Source: Allorhodopirellula solitaria
Lineage (GTDB): Bacteria > Planctomycetota > Planctomycetia > Pirellulales > Pirellulaceae
Assembly (NCBI RefSeq): GCF_007859855.1
Contig: NZ_SJPK01000004.1
Location: forward strand, 124,001-188,000
DNA length: 64,000 nucleotides
Direction of reading: 5' to 3'
The notes below the pieces were generated by a model, which ran no database searches, was not told the DNA's origin, and saw only the letters and a program-made list of their open reading frames with translations. Made by a program: the position numbers and the translations under genes. Below are positions 1 through 26,696 of this stretch, piece after piece (the stretch's first letter is position 1; the number at the start of each line of letters is the position of its first letter).

Positions 1-689
1 CCACCTTCTCGCAGCTGCTCAACCAACGGGACAGGAACCGATTCCGGGCTGCAGGTGACAATAATTTTGTCGAAGGGCGCCTGCTCGGGCCAACCTAAAA
101 AACCATCTCCGATCCGGGTATAGACATTGTCATAGCCGAGCCGGTCGAGCACCTTGCGAGCGGTGACACCAAGCGATTGGACGATCTCGATGGAGTACAC
201 CTCGTCGACCAAGGGGCTCAGCACGGCGGCTTGATAACCGCTGCCGGTACCGATCTCGAGCACCCGATCGTCGACTTGCGGATCGAGCGTTTCGGTCATC
301 GACGCGACGATGAACGGGCTGCTAATCGTCTGCGCCGAACCGATCGGCAACGCCATGTCGAAATAGGCCTTGTTGCGAACCGCAGCGGGAACAAACTCGT
401 GCCGCGGCGTCTGTTGGATCGCATCGAGGACGCGAGAATTGGACACACCAGCGGTGCGAATCCGCGACTCCACCAGCCGCCGACGAGCCTCGGCGTAGGG
501 ATCATTTGGATCGCTCAACGGCGACTGGGCGGGCGTGGTTTGAGCTAGAATAATTCGCGAAGGTTCGGGCACGATGGTCGGCAACGGGTGGGACGAAGGG
601 CGAGGGTGGACGTGCTGCGCCGCGGCGGTTGCAGCCGGGATCGCAGCGAGAACCATCAGACTGATTCCAAGGCGTATCATCATCTTCAT
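1..689 (-). CDS. pcm: Protein-L-isoaspartate O-methyltransferase, apparently exported (3' end off the window)
   Basis: Transfers a methyl group from SAM to isoaspartyl residues of damaged proteins. The reading frame was translated by hand from an ATG at 689 and stays open to the left edge (229 residues seen, C-terminus missing). Residues 1-24 form a signal-peptide-like segment (basic MKMMIR start, hydrophobic core, AAA-type end). The family hallmark [12 protein letters not shown] is at about 118-129 and the SAM-binding loop [13 protein letters not shown] at about 143-155. The start codon overlaps the stop of the upstream ppx-like gene as ATGA, so the two are probably translationally coupled. 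A signal peptide is unexpected because SAM is cytoplasmic. The family call is firm; the location is inferred. Confidence 0.88.
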
Positions 690-2308
690 TCTCCAGCTCG
701 GAGCAGCACGGGGACGCCGAAAATATCGCGAAAGAGCGAACTGTTATTACGCATGGCGAGCTGCTCGAGTGACACGTCATCGACCTCGGGAGCTACGATC
801 ACCAATTGCTTGTCCTCGACAAGACAGCGAATTTCGTGAATTCGTCCACTGCGGGTGTCGTTGAGGGCGATGGCCAAACGCAGCAGGGCAGCCATTTTAG
901 TGACGGCGACGCGGTCCTTGCGATCCAACGCGTCGTAGCCTTCATGGGACGCTTGCGGTGACGCCCGCCGGTGATAGCGAGCCACCAGTGCGACCAGATG
1001 CAGTTCATGCTGACTCAGCCCGAACAGTTCGCTGCTGCGGATCAAGTAGTATGCATGTTTGTGATTGCTATGCAGATTCACGTACAGTCCGATCTCATGC
1101 AAAAGCGCCGCGACGTACAGCAGGACTTCGTGTCTCGCATCGAGCCGGTGCTCGCCGAAAAGTTGCTCGAAGAGACTGCGGGCAAGCTCAGCGACGGTAC
1201 GTGCATGTGTCGCGTCGACAGCGTAGCGTCCGCCAAGGGAGACGGCGGAGCGAATGATTTGCTGGCGAAATTCACTCGTCCAATTGCCGCCTTGCTCGAT
1301 GTCGGCGAGCAGCCCATCGCGCAGGTTGACGCCACTGACAAAGAGGTGGGACAACCCAAAGTGCTTGGCGAACAAAGTGTAGGCGAGCAGCGAAACCTTG
1401 AGTGTCTCAGCTTCGACGAAGGTCGCACCAAAGCGTTTGACAATCGTGTCCTCACTCATCGACAGAATCTGGCCGGAGAGTTTTTCTAACTTCGCGGTTG
1501 CGAGTTTCGCTAAAGACTCCTCATCCCAATCTTCGATCAACCGGTGAGCGGCAAAGCGAATGTCGCCGCCCATGACAACGAGCTGCAAGGGCGAATCCGC
1601 CTTGAGTTCATCGGCGATGCGGTGCACGAACCGACGAACGTGAGTTTCGAGCAGGTGCCGAAGCTTGCCGCCGCGCAGCCCCGAGGCGTCGAGTTCTTGG
1701 ATGAGCCGCAGGGACCCCAAACGAAACGAGTCCGAATGCAAAACATTGCCGCTGCGAATAAGCAGCAACTCGGTACTGCCGCTGCCGATCTCAACAACGA
1801 CCGACTTCGTCCGAGCGGTTTCCTTGCGAGCCATCAACATCGGCGTGATGCCCATGTAAGTGATCCGGTTCACCTCCGCCTCGTCGATCGGCTCGACATC
1901 GAGCCCGGTGGCAACGTAGACACGGTCGACAAACGCGATGCGGTTGGTCGCTTCTCGCACCGCGCTGGTGGCGACGACGCGAATATCCTTGGTATCGGTG
2001 ACCCCGTATTCGCTGAGCACGCGGCGAAAGCGGCGGAGCACCGTCGCGGCCCGCTCGATTCCCCGGCGACTGAGCCGCCGGGTCTCGAAGGCCTCCCGGC
2101 CCAGATCCACGGGCTGCAACAGCGATTCGAGTGTCCGCACTTGACCGTCGGCGTGAATTTCCGCGATCGCCATACGGATGCTGATCGCCCCGATGTCGAT
2201 CACCGCGACGGTTCGAGGTGGCGGCGCCGAAGTGGCCGCCGCTGACACCCGACTCCCCGATGTCGCTTCGGGATGCGAGCCAGTCGGTGGAGGTGTGGAT
2301 GACGTCAT
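686..2308 (-). CDS. ppx: Ppx/GppA-family exopolyphosphatase with C-terminal HD-like domain
   Basis: Family members hydrolyse inorganic polyphosphate or pppGpp. The 540-residue protein has a low-complexity N-terminus of about 32 residues. It is followed by the ASKHA phosphate-loop region [16 protein letters not shown] (about 36-50; the usual DIGSNS reads DIGAIS) and the second loop [13 protein letters not shown] (about 172-184). A Glu-rich segment [13 protein letters not shown] (about 142-154) matches the region of the catalytic Glu. The C-terminal half (about 345-520) is the HD-like domain, with ALLHEIG and NHKHAYYLI. The 3' end overlaps pcm by 4 bp. Ppx and GppA activities cannot be separated by eye, and the altered first loop leaves substrate uncertain. 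Confidence 0.85.
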
Positions 2309-2402
2309 GGGTCACGAGGGTGAGGACAGTGAGAAACGGAAAGGCACTACCATCATAGACACCTCGCCGAGACCGCGTGCAAGAAGAGCCCATTCTAGCC
2401 AA

Positions 2403-2475
2403 CACCCCCTGCCCGATTCGAACGAGCGTTTCCGACTGGATCAGCCGGCGTCCTGAGCCACTAGACGAAGGGGGA
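2403..2475 (-). tRNA. tRNA-Glu-like gene with an unreadable anticodon loop
   Basis: Read on the minus strand, the 5' half (TCCCCCTTCGTCTAG...AGGAC) closely matches bacterial tRNA-Glu, and the T arm GCTCG-TTCGAAT-CGGGC is canonical. The acceptor stem has 6 pairs plus a T-T at position 1-72, the discriminator is G, and no CCA is encoded. The anticodon stem CCGGC/GTCGG closes the loop TGATCCA, which has G at position 33 (normally invariant U) and C at 37. The same bases can extend to a 7-bp stem with a three-base ATC loop. No standard anticodon can be assigned. Stems differ from ordinary tRNA-Glu yet still pair, so it may be a maintained tRNA-like RNA rather than simple decay. Confidence 0.7.
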
Positions 2476-2478
2476 CTG

Positions 2479-2522
2479 AAAACGCCCCGTCAGCCGGTTG
2501 GGCAATCCAACCGACGTGGGGC
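2479..2522 (-). terminator. Rho-independent terminator after clpP
   Basis: On the minus strand GCCCC...GTCGGTTGG, a 5-nt loop, then CCAACCGGC...GGGGC forms a long GC-rich hairpin followed by GTTTTC. It lies between the clpP stop and the tRNA-like gene, so it would end the clpP transcript. Confidence 0.65.
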
Positions 2523-2615
2523 AAATCGAAAGGCAGCCTCGCAGTTCATTATGCTTGCTCCAAGGAGGGAATCCAGCAGGGGCGAGCGCAAAACAATGCC
2601 TTTACTTGGGCGGCG

Positions 2616-3215
2616 TTACTCCGCGGCTGCTTCGTCCACTCGACTGACGACTCGGTCGATCAGCCCATACTCGCGAGCTTCCTCGGCTGACATGAAGCGG
2701 TCACGATCGGTGTCCTCCTCAATTTTCTCCAGCGAATGGCCGGTGTGCTCGATCATGATTTCATTCATTTTTTTCTTGATCCGGCGGAGTTCCCCAACGT
2801 GGATCTCGACTTCACGTGCAGTGCCTTGCATGCCGGCGAGCGGTTGGTGGATCATGATCCGGGCGTTGGGCAGTGAGAATCGCTTGCCCTTGGCGCCGGC
2901 TGTCAACAGCACCGCACCCATCGAAGCGGCCTGCCCCATGCAGTAAGTCGCGACGTCGCAACTGACGAACTGCATCGTGTCGTAAATCGCCATCCCCGCC
3001 GTGATGCTACCGCCGGGCGAGTTGATGTACATGTGAATGTCGGCCTTGGGATCGTCCGATTGCAAAAACAGCATCTGCGCGACCAACGCGTTGCTGATTT
3101 GGTCATCGACCTGTTGGCCTAAAAAAATGATCCGGTCTTTGAGCAACCGGCTATAAATGTCGTAGGTGCGTTCTTCGCGGCCGTTGCTTTCGACCACGTA
3201 AGGGATGACTGGCAT
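2616..3215 (-). CDS. clpP: ATP-dependent Clp protease proteolytic subunit (copy 1)
   Basis: Serine peptidase subunit of the Clp degradation machine, which works with a ClpX or ClpA/C ATPase in the cytoplasm. The 199-residue length is normal for ClpP. The catalytic triad is complete: Ser98 in GQAASMGA, His123 in MIHQP, and Asp172 in DTDRDRF. The oligomerisation and substrate-groove segment [20 protein letters not shown] is intact. It lies 51 bp downstream of a second clpP in the same direction, consistent with one operon. It is closer to the E. coli type than its neighbour and ends at a clear terminator. Confidence 0.97.
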
Positions 3216-3266: not shown

Positions 3267-3935
3267 TCACTCATCGTCGTCGGCCGGGAGCTCTTCTTTT
3301 TTGAGTAAATCGTCGACCAATCCATATTCCTTGGCCTGTTCGGCCGAGAGAAAGAAGTCGCGGTCGGTGTCTTTGGCGATCTGGTCGATCGACTTGCCAC
3401 TGTGTTCGCTGATGATTTGATTGAGCTTGTCGCGGTAGCGAAACATCTCCGAAGCTTGGATTTCAATGTCGCTGACCTGGCCCGAGACACCGCCCATCGG
3501 CTGGTGCATCATGACGCGGCTGTTGGGTAGACAGAACCGTTTCCCCTTGGCACCGCCGACCAGCAGAACCGCTGCGCCGCTGCAGGCCTCGCCCACGCAG
3601 TAGGTCGCCACCGGGCACGAGACCATCTGCATCGTGTCATAGATCGCCAGCGTCGCGGTGACACTGCCGCCCGGGGAATTGATGTAGAAATGGATGTCCT
3701 TGCGGCGGTTCTCGCTCTGCAAGTACAACAGTTTCATGACAATTTCGTTCGCGTTGGCGTAGTGAATCTCGCCCTGCATGAACACGATGCGATTTTCCAA
3801 GAGCAAATCGCCGAGCGTCATCTGACGCTGACGCTGGTAGCCCTGACTGGCATGGCTGCCCGCCAAGCGATGATCGGAGATCGAGTCGGCACCACCGGCG
3901 AACAGTGGTGATAAGGAACCAAACGGATCGGACAT
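3267..3935 (-). CDS. clpP: ATP-dependent Clp protease proteolytic subunit (copy 2, divergent paralogue)
   Basis: Second ClpP paralogue of 222 residues from the ATG at 3935, which has a GAAGG-type ribosome binding site about 10 nt upstream. The frame is open to 4025, but that longer start would overlap rlmN. The triad is intact: Ser119 in GEACSGAA, His144 in MMHQP, and Asp193 in DTDRDFF. A 30-40-residue N-terminal extension and the altered serine motif (ACSG instead of AASM) separate it from copy 1. Tandem clpP genes in other bacteria can form mixed-ring ClpP1P2 complexes; that this pair does so is inference. Confidence 0.95.
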   Translation of the reverse strand: MSDPFGSLSPLFAGGADSISDHRLAGSHASQGYQRQRQMTLGDLLLENRIVFMQGEIHYANANEIVMKLLYLQSENRRKDIHFYINSPGGSVTATLAIYDTMQMVSCPVATYCVGEACSGAAVLLVGGAKGKRFCLPNSRVMMHQPMGGVSGQVSDIEIQASEMFRYRDKLNQIISEHSGKSIDQIAKDTDRDFFLSAEQAKEYGLVDDLLKKEELPADDDE

Positions 3936-3960
3936 TCGATATTTACCTTCAGGGGTACTT

Positions 3961-5124
3961 ATGGTGAGTTTCTCTGTCGCCAGTGTTCGCGATTCGCTTT
4001 CAGGTGACAAGACCGGTATTGTCAACTTTTCGGATAGGTATTTCTTCCCTACGGCATCTCAGAACTGCTCGATCGTGTCCGCACCCATCTCTATTTTTGA
4101 TGCTCCCGCGCTCGAAAAGCTGCGACGCCAGCGTCGCCTGGATCCCCAGTACGTGCGCGTGCTCCGCAACCGGCTGTTCAAACAGTTCCAGCCCGATGAG
4201 GTATCACTGGCAGGCTTTCCCGCTCGCGAACAGGTTCGTTGTCATACGCTCGAACTGTACCGGCGGGTCGATTCCGCCGTCGACGGCGCCACCAAATTGC
4301 TCTTTCGAACCGCTGCGGGATTGCTGATCGAGTCGGTCGTGCTGCGGATCGCGAGCGGGAGGACGACGCTGTGCGTCTCCAGCCAAGTGGGCTGCGCGGC
4401 GGCCTGTGAATTCTGCGCCACCGGCAAGATGGGCATCGCGAGAAATCTTCTCCCCGCTGAGATCCTTGATCAGGTGCTGCAGGCGGGACAATTACTCGCC
4501 GCCGAACAAAGTCGTTTGGATAATATTGTGTTCATGGGCATGGGTGAACCGTTTCACAATGAGACGAACCTTTGGGAAACGCTCGATGCTTTGACCGCCG
4601 GGGACCACTTCCACCGCTCTCCGGCCAACATTCTCGTCTCGACGGTCGGGGTGAGCGACGCGATGCTGCGACTGGCCAAACGATTCCCCAAAGTCAATCT
4701 AGCCCTCAGTCTTCACAGTGTCGATCAGAAAACACGAGAACAAATCATGCCGTTGGCACGACGATATCCGCTCACCGAATTGAGGCGTGTCCTCGGCCAG
4801 TGCCAGCAGACCCAGGGCCGCGAGGTGATGATCGAATACCTGATGCTGCACAAACTCAATGATGCTCGCGAACAAGCCAATCACTTAGTCGCTTGGCTGG
4901 GAGATCTTCGCGCCCACGTTAACCTGATCCCGTACAACTCCATCGAGGACGCTCCCCACTTGCAGGCCTCCTCACCGGAAAAAATCGCGGAATTTGCGGG
5001 CCGACTCAAGGCCGCTGGCGTTAAAACGACCGTGCGCTATTCGCTCGGCCAAGACATCGCCGCTGCCTGCGGGCAATTGGTGCGGAAAGAGAATCGACTC
5101 CGCGAACCCTCCCATAGACTGTAA
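3961..5124 (+). CDS. rlmN: RlmN/Cfr-family radical SAM 23S rRNA methyltransferase
   Basis: Family enzymes methylate A2503 of 23S rRNA (and A37 of some tRNAs) using a 4Fe-4S cluster and a methyl-Cys intermediate. The cluster motif CAAACEFC is at 145-152, preceded by the conserved Cys138 in CVSSQVGC. GMGEPFHN and LSLHSVD motifs follow. The C-terminal catalytic Cys lies in SLGQDIAAACGQL. The segment before it (RYSLGQDI) resembles Cfr more than the RKTRGDDI-like sequence usual in RlmN, so C2 or C8 specificity is not settled. The ATG at 3961 has AGGGG five bases upstream; a GTG at 4075 is an alternative that would leave more room for divergent promoters with clpP. Confidence 0.9.
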   Translation: MVSFSVASVRDSLSGDKTGIVNFSDRYFFPTASQNCSIVSAPISIFDAPALEKLRRQRRLDPQYVRVLRNRLFKQFQPDEVSLAGFPAREQVRCHTLELYRRVDSAVDGATKLLFRTAAGLLIESVVLRIASGRTTLCVSSQVGCAAACEFCATGKMGIARNLLPAEILDQVLQAGQLLAAEQSRLDNIVFMGMGEPFHNETNLWETLDALTAGDHFHRSPANILVSTVGVSDAMLRLAKRFPKVNLALSLHSVDQKTREQIMPLARRYPLTELRRVLGQCQQTQGREVMIEYLMLHKLNDAREQANHLVAWLGDLRAHVNLIPYNSIEDAPHLQASSPEKIAEFAGRLKAAGVKTTVRYSLGQDIAAACGQLVRKENRLREPSHRL

Positions 5125-25884: not shown

Positions 25885-25958
25885 GCGCCCGTGGCACAAT
25901 TGGATAGCGCGTCGGCCTCCGAAGCCGAAGGTTACAGGTTCGAATCCTGTCGGGCGTA
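25885..25958 (+). tRNA. tRNA-Arg (anticodon CCG)
   Basis: Cloverleaf of 74 nt: acceptor GCGCCCG/CGGGCGT (one G-T pair), D arm GCAC...GCGC, anticodon stem TCGGC/GCCGA with loop CTCCGAA, and T arm ACAGG-TTCGAAT-CCTGT. The anticodon CCG reads CGG codons. CCA is not encoded, as also for the tRNA-like gene at 2403-2475. Confidence 0.95.
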
Positions 25959-26696
25959 CTGAGTTCATTTCTAGCTGAATCACTGGGTTGATCCCAATTT
26001 GATACCCAGCATCGAGCTCGTGCGGCGTTTTCCCAAACCCGATCAATCCGGTAGTGGCTGCTGAGATTGCCAGGCTGGGCCCAGAGTGTCAACGAACTTC
26101 TCAGCCGGCGTGAACTCGATGATGCTCAGCGAGGACGACCAGGCGGCGCCCCCTGACGGGTCGAAGCGATCCCCAGAAGACTTAACTTGAAATCAACCAT
26201 GCGTCCGCGCAGGCGGCCAAAGGATCGTGCCTAGCCACCAGATGCCAGCAAAGAGGCTTGACGCGTTTCTCATTTCCAAGACGCAACGTGCCTGAACGAG
26301 CATCCTATCGGATCGCTGGCGAATCAGCGGGTGAGACGCGTTTAGGTCGCGGGGAATCCGGATTGATACGCCAGACCAGCCAGCACGATAGGGCCGTTTC
26401 CCGCCGGCCGAATGCGCCGGGGGCTGCACCCGACCTCTTCGGACAAGCCAAGGGGATGGCCTGTTCCTACGTGTTCATTGCAGCCGCACCCTCGTCCGAT
26501 CGCGATTGCCAGATCAACGAGGCCTGTCCGTTCAGGTCATCGTCGCCGTCGACAACACCGAATACAACTCGTGTCGCCTATCCTTTTTCGCGCAGTCTCC
26601 GCTCAGACGCTAGCTAAAATTCAGATGCCTTGTTCCCCATTCACCGTCTCGGCCATGATCCGAAAGGCGATGCTCTCGGTCTTTCGGAGTCTCCAG
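25959..26696. other. Gene-free region with a degenerate repeat
   Basis: No credible coding sequence. Around 26385-26425 the sequence (gatagggccgtttcccgccggccgaatgcgcc) is a decayed relative of the 129-bp element found at 23.3 kb. Otherwise nothing recognisable was seen. Confidence 0.6.

What the first reader, a model, noticed from the sequence alone, without database searches (positions are those of the whole stretch)
2403..2475. tRNA-Glu-like RNA without a usable anticodon
The D-arm side and T arm read as tRNA-Glu, but the anticodon loop TGATCCA lacks U33 and has C37. Its bases can close a 7-bp stem with a 3-nt loop. The anticodon and T stems differ from ordinary tRNA-Glu but remain paired, which suggests selection on structure. 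It could be a tRNA-like RNA with a non-decoding role such as amino acid donation, a processing substrate or a regulatory RNA next to clpP. Decay from a real tRNA-Glu is the simple alternative.
Basis: partly seen in the sequence, partly recalled or inferred. Interest (0 to 1): 0.7.

Follow-up and report, generated by a model that had tools for sequence, protein, structure and literature searches.

The report
A tRNA-Glu retired from translation
A bacterial gene for a glutamate transfer RNA has lost the part that reads the genetic code while the rest of the molecule is kept almost unchanged, so it probably now carries glutamate for another job, perhaps making heme.

Summary
In detail: window 2475-2403 (-) encodes a 73-nt tRNA-Glu-like RNA with anticodon loop UGAUCCA. 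It is not decay. The same RNA lies just downstream of clpP2 in the 14 genomes aligned (13 of 13 of the genus, and one of another genus). Of 55 positions outside the anticodon arm, 51 are invariant, while flanks and clpP2 synonymous sites have diverged. The anticodon arm varies in sequence and length but stays paired. Its only invariant loop bases are U35 and C36, which glutamyl-tRNA synthetase (GluRS) reads. Relatives place its origin in the auxiliary tRNA-Glu(CUC), whose loop is non-standard in several genera. In the window's clade T-stem pairs that set EF-Tu affinity changed too. All 14 genomes keep a normal tRNA-Glu(UUC). Best reading: a non-proteinogenic tRNA-Glu, still charged but kept off EF-Tu and the ribosome, that donates glutamate elsewhere. 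Glutamyl-tRNA reductase (heme synthesis) is the likeliest user. Expression, charging and the acceptor are inferred, not shown. Known parallels are the S. aureus peptidoglycan tRNA-Gly and B. cereus tRNA-Other. The literature searches named in the report showed no such tRNA-Glu in the listings seen.

The parts
2403..2475 (-). tRNA-Glu-like RNA, 73 nt, derived from tRNA-Glu(CUC); no CCA encoded
2450..2466 (-). D arm GUCU...GGAC; U11-A24 and U13.G22 kept (GluRS identity elements named in PMC9976931)
2432..2448 (-). anticodon arm: stem variable but paired in the 14 genomes; 32-38 pairs
2437..2443 (-). anticodon loop UGAUCCA (G33, A34, U35, C36, C37)
2439..2440 (-). U35-C36, the only invariant loop positions among the 14 genomes
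2428..2431 (-). variable region AAAC: A46 present, position 47 absent (tRNA-Glu-type core)
2411..2427 (-). T arm GCUCG-UUCGAAU-CGGGC: 49-65 G-C and 50-64 C-G, where standard-loop relatives mostly have A-U (21 of 26 rows) and G-C (21 of 26); 51-63 U.G, also seen in 9 of 26 standard rows
2484..2522 (-). predicted hairpin between the clpP2 stop and the tRNA 5' end; possible clpP2 mRNA 3' end after RNase P cleavage (inference)
2616..3215 (-). clpP2 (CLP_protease), just upstream in the 14 genomes
3267..4025 (-). clpP1 (CLP_protease); start codon uncertain
686..2308 (-). Ppx/GppA-HD phosphatase downstream; neighbour only in part of the clade (5 of the 14 loci, own included)

Best explanation
This is a non-proteinogenic tRNA-Glu. 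An auxiliary tRNA-Glu(CUC), redundant because tRNA-Glu(UUC) can also read GAG (established knowledge), was freed from decoding. Its anticodon loop drifted into a closed hairpin that keeps U35 and C36, and its T stem changed at EF-Tu contact pairs. The D arm, variable region, T loop and acceptor arm stayed nearly fixed. Proposed mechanism: RNase P, RNase Z and CCA-adding enzyme mature it (inferred). GluRS glutamylates it through the conserved tRNA-Glu core plus U35/C36 (inferred). EF-Tu and the ribosome do not use it (inferred from T stem and loop). The glutamate is therefore reserved for an enzyme that takes Glu-tRNA directly, most likely glutamyl-tRNA reductase (GluTR), the first step of 5-aminolevulinate and heme synthesis. 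Shown here: derivation, purifying selection, loss of the standard loop, the T-stem change, and a retained normal tRNA-Glu(UUC). Not shown: transcription, charging and the acceptor enzyme.
For: (1) It is conserved in the same place, downstream of clpP2, in the 14 genomes aligned. The body is 93-98% identical to the window's over 55 nt, against 21-44% for flanks and 46-60% at clpP2 four-fold sites. (2) 51 of 55 body positions are invariant; in the 20 anticodon-arm columns only 6 are. All helix cells outside the 1-72 pair form standard pairs, with changes on both sides at two anticodon-arm pairs. (3) The only invariant loop bases are U35 and C36. U8, the 5' D-stem strand GUCU, A46 and C56 are present in 70 of 70 rows parsed. 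PMC9976931 passages name U11-A24, U13.G22:A46, absence of 47, U34, U35, C36 and A37 as tRNA-Glu determinants. (4) The T stem is G49-C65, C50-G64, U51.G63. PMC11231383 and PMC8219837 passages say that pairs 49-65, 50-64 and 51-63 set EF-Tu affinity; PMC8219837 says the tRNA-Glu stem binds EF-Tu strongly; PMC11231383 says C50-G64 is one of three EF-Tu antideterminants of tRNA-Sec. PMC9976931 says S. aureus non-proteinogenic tRNA-Gly escape EF-Tu by changes at pairs including 49-65 and 51-63. (5) A canonical tRNA-Glu(UUC) with a standard loop exists in 14 of 14 genomes. (6) GluTR is present in 23 of 23 genomes tested. No match to 5-aminolevulinate synthase passes its cut-off (0 of 23), and the four best-scoring matches are glycine C-acetyltransferases by NCBIfam (4 of 4). 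Heme synthesis there therefore most likely needs Glu-tRNA.
Against: No RNA or charging data exist here. E. coli GluRS also wants U34 and A37, and the window has A34 and C37, so charging may be weak. The core elements that GluTR needs are shared by tRNA-Glu in general, also by the UUC gene of the same genomes, so they do not single out GluTR. Genomes such as G114 and G013 give one R1 match only (whose filters lose weak matches), so a second tRNA-Glu seems dispensable in some relatives. Non-standard loops of the Stieleria type (CUUUCCG) keep U33 and a UUC anticodon and might still decode. The U1-U72 mismatch and the A/G73 switch are unexplained. U51.G63 also occurs in 9 of 26 standard rows, and 11 of 44 non-standard rows keep A49-U65. 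The C50-G64/loop association lies largely within related genera. Of the five shuffle measures, two were reached by 46 and 48 of 500 shuffles.
Confidence: 0.5

Rival explanations
1. A regulatory or sponge RNA: the tRNA-like fold is matured and binds GluRS, GluTR, RNase P or another protein without delivering an amino acid, as described for pseudo-tRNAs and mascRNA.
For: Loop unsuited to decoding; charging determinants at 34 and 37 of the E. coli type are absent. B. cereus tRNA-Other and mascRNA are precedents (passages).
Against: The acceptor arm is invariant at 2-7/66-71 and U35-C36 are the only fixed loop bases, which suggests charging is still selected. No base-pairing target was sought.
Confidence: 0.22
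2. A processing or 3'-end element of the clpP1-clpP2 transcript: RNase P cleaves at the tRNA-like fold and leaves clpP2 mRNA with a protective hairpin.
For: clpP2 precedes it in the 14 genomes aligned; the gap from its stop codon is 35-49 nt in 7 of 14 and 63-159 nt in 7 of 14. The 50 nt upstream fold at -10 kcal/mol or lower in 12 of 14, without a shuffle control. No promoter-like site was found in window 2200-2800, where 0.1 is expected by chance.
Against: Relatives with non-standard loops and the same or nearly the same T stem show no clpP match in the 2-3 kb fetched around the gene (L104, L108, L127, L128, L132-L135). A cleavage signal alone would not keep D-arm, variable-region and U35/C36 identity.
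Confidence: 0.1
3. It still decodes, for example as a weak or shifted-frame tRNA-Glu.
For: Some relatives keep U33 and a UUC or CUC anticodon; two of the window's genus (G003, G008) have U33.
Against: In the window's genus loops differ in length and at 33 and 34 between neighbours (8 different loops in the 14 rows), 32-38 forms a Watson-Crick or wobble pair, and T-stem pairs 49-65 and 50-64 differ from most standard relatives. tRNA-Glu(UUC) in the same 14 genomes keeps one standard loop.
Confidence: 0.1
4. Glutamyl donor for another enzyme: a lanthipeptide dehydratase, a Fem-type ligase or an aminoacyl-tRNA-protein transferase acting with ClpP.
For: ATE_C transferases occur in 22 of 23 genomes and FemAB matches in 10 of 23.
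Against: Neither follows the loop state. The Lant_dehydr_N model found 0 of 23, but its 14 control genomes were silent too, so absence is not shown. Known ATE/Bpt enzymes use Arg or Leu (recalled).
Confidence: 0.12
5. Decaying pseudogene of tRNA-Glu(CUC).
For: The loop is abnormal and Rfam's tRNA model misses it.
Against: Near-invariant body while flanks and synonymous sites have diverged; anticodon stems stay paired, with changes on both sides at two pairs.
Confidence: 0.03

Closest known systems
Staphylococcus aureus non-proteinogenic tRNA-Gly for peptidoglycan (passage in PMC9976931)
   Same: A tRNA copy that keeps its amino-acid identity while T-stem pairs, 49-65 and 51-63 among them, are changed to escape EF-Tu
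   Different: Glutamate instead of glycine, another phylum, an anticodon loop altered in sequence and length, and an acceptor enzyme not established
Bacillus cereus tRNA-Other (PMC3399842, passages)
   Same: Pseudo-tRNA outside translation, present in related strains
   Different: Has a Trp anticodon, lies in a longer iron-regulated RNA beside a genomic island; the present RNA is conserved across genera, in the window's clade beside clpP2
Acidithiobacillus ferrooxidans tRNA-Glu set (PMC4284751, passages)
   Same: Several tRNA-Glu shared unequally between protein and heme synthesis
   Different: There, three serve both pathways and one likely serves protein only; a heme-only, non-decoding tRNA-Glu is the reverse case
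mascRNA (PMC9976931, passage)
   Same: Cloverleaf RNA with tRNA-Glu determinants and no conserved anticodon loop, released from a longer transcript
   Different: Mammalian, not aminoacylated

Membership tests
Canonical elongator tRNA-Glu | 7-nt loop with U33, YUC anticodon and purine 37 | tested here: not met
   Loop UGAUCCA; 0 of 14 genomes aligned have the standard loop
Canonical elongator tRNA-Glu | U11-A24, U13.G22, A46, no nucleotide 47 | tested here: met
   Invariant in the 14-genome alignment; 5' D-stem strand and A46 in 70 of 70 rows parsed
Non-proteinogenic tRNA | Maintained by selection although unfit to decode | tested here: met
   unfitness to decode is judged from the loop, not measured
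Non-proteinogenic tRNA | T-stem pairs altered to escape EF-Tu | tested here: inconclusive
   Pairs 49-65 and 50-64 are changed; C50-G64 in 33 of 44 rows with non-standard loops and 2 of 26 standard rows; U51.G63 is not specific; binding was not measured
Non-proteinogenic tRNA | Charged in vivo and absent from polysomes | not testable with these tools
   needs tRNA-seq and charging assays
GluTR substrate (heme route) | U8, U13.G22.A46, 19-56 pair, no nucleotide 47 (Randau et al. 2004, recalled; paper not held) | tested here: met
   U8, A46 and C56 in 70 of 70 rows; U13.G22 and G19 in the 14-genome alignment; also present in the UUC tRNA-Glu, so weak
GluTR substrate (heme route) | Reduction of the charged RNA by GluTR | not testable with these tools
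   enzyme assay needed
Rfam RF00005 tRNA | Score at or above the gathering cut-off | tested here: not met
   Not reported or the whole-genome scan

The most novel reading that the evidence does not exclude
In Rhodopirellula and relatives a second tRNA-Glu has become a heme-only glutamate carrier: charged by the ordinary GluRS but closed to EF-Tu and the ribosome, so that the Glu-tRNA pools for protein and for tetrapyrroles are physically separate. The gradual series in sister genera would record how a tRNA leaves translation step by step.
Probability: 0.3. Interest if true: 0.85.

Novelty: new variant of a known kind. Interest (0 to 1): 0.68.

Why it matters
How one Glu-tRNA pool is shared between protein and heme synthesis is an old question. 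A natural tRNA-Glu that keeps the core and loses decoding separates the two uses genetically and makes the question testable with simple in vitro assays and one deletion. It also shows a chain of intermediates for the exaptation of a tRNA. ARAGORN calls the RNA tRNA-Asp, tRNA-Met, tRNA-Ile or tRNA-Asn depending on the species, so tRNA tables for these genomes may be wrong.

Tried and rejected
Decay was rejected on conservation. A clpP-bound role was lowered because the gene with a non-standard loop occurs without a clpP match nearby. Lanthipeptide dehydratase (controls silent, so not proof of absence), ATE_C and FemAB gave no co-occurrence with loop state. A second GluRS dedicated to this RNA was sought with PF00749 in 23 genomes. 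From match scores and frame lengths, most genomes carry one GlnRS-like, one GluRS-like and often one shorter Glu-Q-RS-like gene; these labels are mine. The shorter gene also occurs in genomes with a standard CUC tRNA (G018, G174, G201), so it does not track the loop. The partial match G004:C1:1354033 was fetched as L076 and is not called a tRNA. The promoter and terminator scan of window 2200-2800 found nothing. Nine literature searches showed no planctomycete or tRNA-Glu case of this kind in their listings. Searches listed only part of the papers found (12 of 1,171), and subscription papers are mostly not held.

Full report
What is there. The window is G000:C4:124001-188000. On the minus strand, 2475-2403 gives UCCCCCU UC GUCU AGUGGCUCA GGAC G CCGGC UGAUCCA GUCGG AAAC GCUCG UUCGAAU CGGGC AGGGGGU G, a complete cloverleaf. 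ARAGORN labels it tRNA-Asp(atc). Rfam's tRNA model does not report it, nor is it among the 43 tRNA matches of the whole own genome. ARAGORN called 42 of those 43; the only tRNA-Glu among them is UUC (L066).

It is maintained. A DNA search of 40 relatives with the RNA found matches in 31 of 40. In 14 of these genomes (13 of 13 of the window's genus, own included, and G023 of another genus) the match is the same RNA immediately downstream of clpP2. The 16 other matches given as loci (L015-L030) are ordinary tRNA-Glu, CUC or UUC, with no match to clpP1, clpP2, ppx or the radical-SAM gene in the fetched DNA. Four further rows had no locus; one of them, in G004, was fetched and is not called a tRNA. 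In the 14-sequence alignment 51 of 55 positions outside the anticodon arm are invariant, against 6 of 20 columns inside it. Compared with the window, body identity is 93-98%, anticodon-arm identity 50-89%, upstream 30 nt 23-44%, downstream 60 nt 21-43%, and clpP2 four-fold third positions 46-60%. The anticodon stem, extended by the 32-38 pair, is paired in all cells with letters, and two of its six pairs change on both sides. Against 500 shuffles, the covariation score, the percentage paired and the number of cells changed on both sides were never reached, but the number of such pairs was reached in 46 and the number of pair types in 48; these shuffles do not remove relatedness. The T and D helices and acceptor pairs 2-7 do not vary, so they say nothing for or against pairing there.

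Where it came from. A covariance model of the 14 (R1) matched 222 of 241 family genomes and 385 of 397 class genomes at E<=0.001; many matches are ordinary tRNA-Glu, as the ones read show. I read 56 of the matches listed, taken mainly from the top and hence biased to this RNA, and parsed them with the 14 (70 rows). They form a series. Standard CUC forms come first, some already beside clpP2 (L126, L139, L157). Then come 8-nt loops such as CUUCUCGG beside clpP2 (L144, L148), loops with C37 and a 32-38 C-G pair (CUUUCCG, as in Stieleria tagensis), and 9-nt loops (L098, L105, L155). Last are the Rhodopirellula-group forms. By a simple rule (7-nt loop, U33, purine 37, UUC or CUC), 26 of 70 rows are standard and 44 are not. 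Five rows (G002, G009, L111, L112, L159) are shifted by one base in that fixed parse, so U35-C36 counts 65 of 70. Read by pairing, these five also carry UC at the same place (my reading). Position 1-72 is G.U in 64, U.U in 5 and G-C in 1 of 70. On a GlnRS tree of 21 genomes, the 15 with altered loops need at least 3 changes, of which well-supported branches force 2, so the standard loop was lost more than once or regained. Carriers named by an exact pattern scan (9 stretches) are Neorhodopirellula pilleata, Rhodopirellula europaea, R. rubra and R. sallentina, Aporhodopirellula aestuarii, Roseiconus nitratireducens, Rubripirellula obstinata, Stieleria tagensis and strain K23_9.

What it keeps and what it lost. 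It keeps U8, U11-A24, U13.G22, A46, absence of 47 and C56. Passages of PMC9976931 list U11-A24, U13.G22:A46 and absence of 47, with U34, U35, C36 and A37, as tRNA-Glu determinants in E. coli, and note that A. ferrooxidans GluRS1 reads the augmented D stem and absence of 47. The only invariant loop bases among the 14 are U35 and C36. It lost the standard loop, and its T stem is G49-C65, C50-G64, U51.G63. Standard rows have A49-U65 in 21 of 26, G50-C64 in 21 of 26 and U51.G63 in 9 of 26. Non-standard rows have G49-C65 in 33 of 44, C50-G64 in 33 of 44 and U51.G63 in 24 of 44. So 49-65 and 50-64 are the pairs that changed with the loop, largely in related genera, and 51-63 is not specific. PMC11231383 passages say pairs 49:65, 50:64 and 51:63 set EF-Tu affinity and that C50:G64 is part of the tRNA-Sec antideterminant. 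PMC8219837 passages say the tRNA-Glu T stem is among the strongest EF-Tu binders. I infer weaker EF-Tu binding; no value was computed.

Function. All 14 genomes have an ordinary tRNA-Glu(UUC) with one standard loop, and R1 finds two matches in each of the 13 genomes of the genus, consistent with this RNA plus UUC. GluTR is present in 23 of 23 genomes tested. The 5-aminolevulinate synthase model finds relatives of that enzyme in 23 of 23, but none passes its cut-off of 338.55 bits (0 of 23; best 313.9; 1 of 14 control genomes passes). The four best of these matches, one from the window's own genome, score over the cut-off of NCBIfam's glycine C-acetyltransferase (4 of 4). Heme synthesis there therefore most likely consumes Glu-tRNA. 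From recall of Randau et al. 2004 (cited in PMC4041420; not held), E. coli GluTR reads the tRNA core and tolerates removal of the anticodon arm. A tRNA-Glu with a fixed core and a free anticodon arm is what a GluTR-dedicated carrier should look like. PMC4284751 passages describe competition of heme and protein synthesis for Glu-tRNA and one tRNA-Glu that likely serves protein only. The charging step and the acceptor remain inference. Against it: A34 and C37 should hurt an E. coli-type GluRS; some relatives show a single R1 match (G013, G114, with filters that lose weak matches); and the core is common to tRNA-Glu in general.

Placement. It works like the S. aureus non-proteinogenic tRNA-Gly (passage), with another amino acid and an open acceptor. 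B. cereus tRNA-Other is the other bacterial parallel (passages). Term searches inside the review of non-canonical tRNAs (PMC7609411) and PMC8007984 showed no planctomycete or tRNA-Glu passage; the listings seen showed no such case. Confidence: maintained non-decoding tRNA-Glu derivative about 0.85; charged Glu donor about 0.55; GluTR as acceptor about 0.35.

Noticed in passing
window 2476-2526 and the same place in L002-L014: The 50 nt just upstream of the tRNA-like RNA fold at -10 kcal/mol or lower in 12 of 14 genomes, often as one hairpin between the clpP2 stop and the RNA, although the sequences do not align (no shuffle control).
   Followed up: partly
L069 (G000:C6:363332-363391): A tRNA-like match that Rfam aligns only in part and ARAGORN does not call; by eye it has a GCA anticodon and an encoded CCA, so it may be an acquired or odd tRNA.
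   Followed up: no
rows of A1 and A2: This tRNA-Glu carries a weak first pair: G1.U72 in 64 of 70 rows parsed, U1/U72 in 5; the UUC isoacceptor of the 14 genomes has G1-C72.
   Followed up: partly
family genomes such as G114 and G013: Some genomes give only one match to model R1, so they may have lost the second tRNA-Glu (weak matches can be lost by its filters).
   Followed up: no
window 25885-25959: Ordinary tRNA-Arg(ccg).
   Followed up: yes
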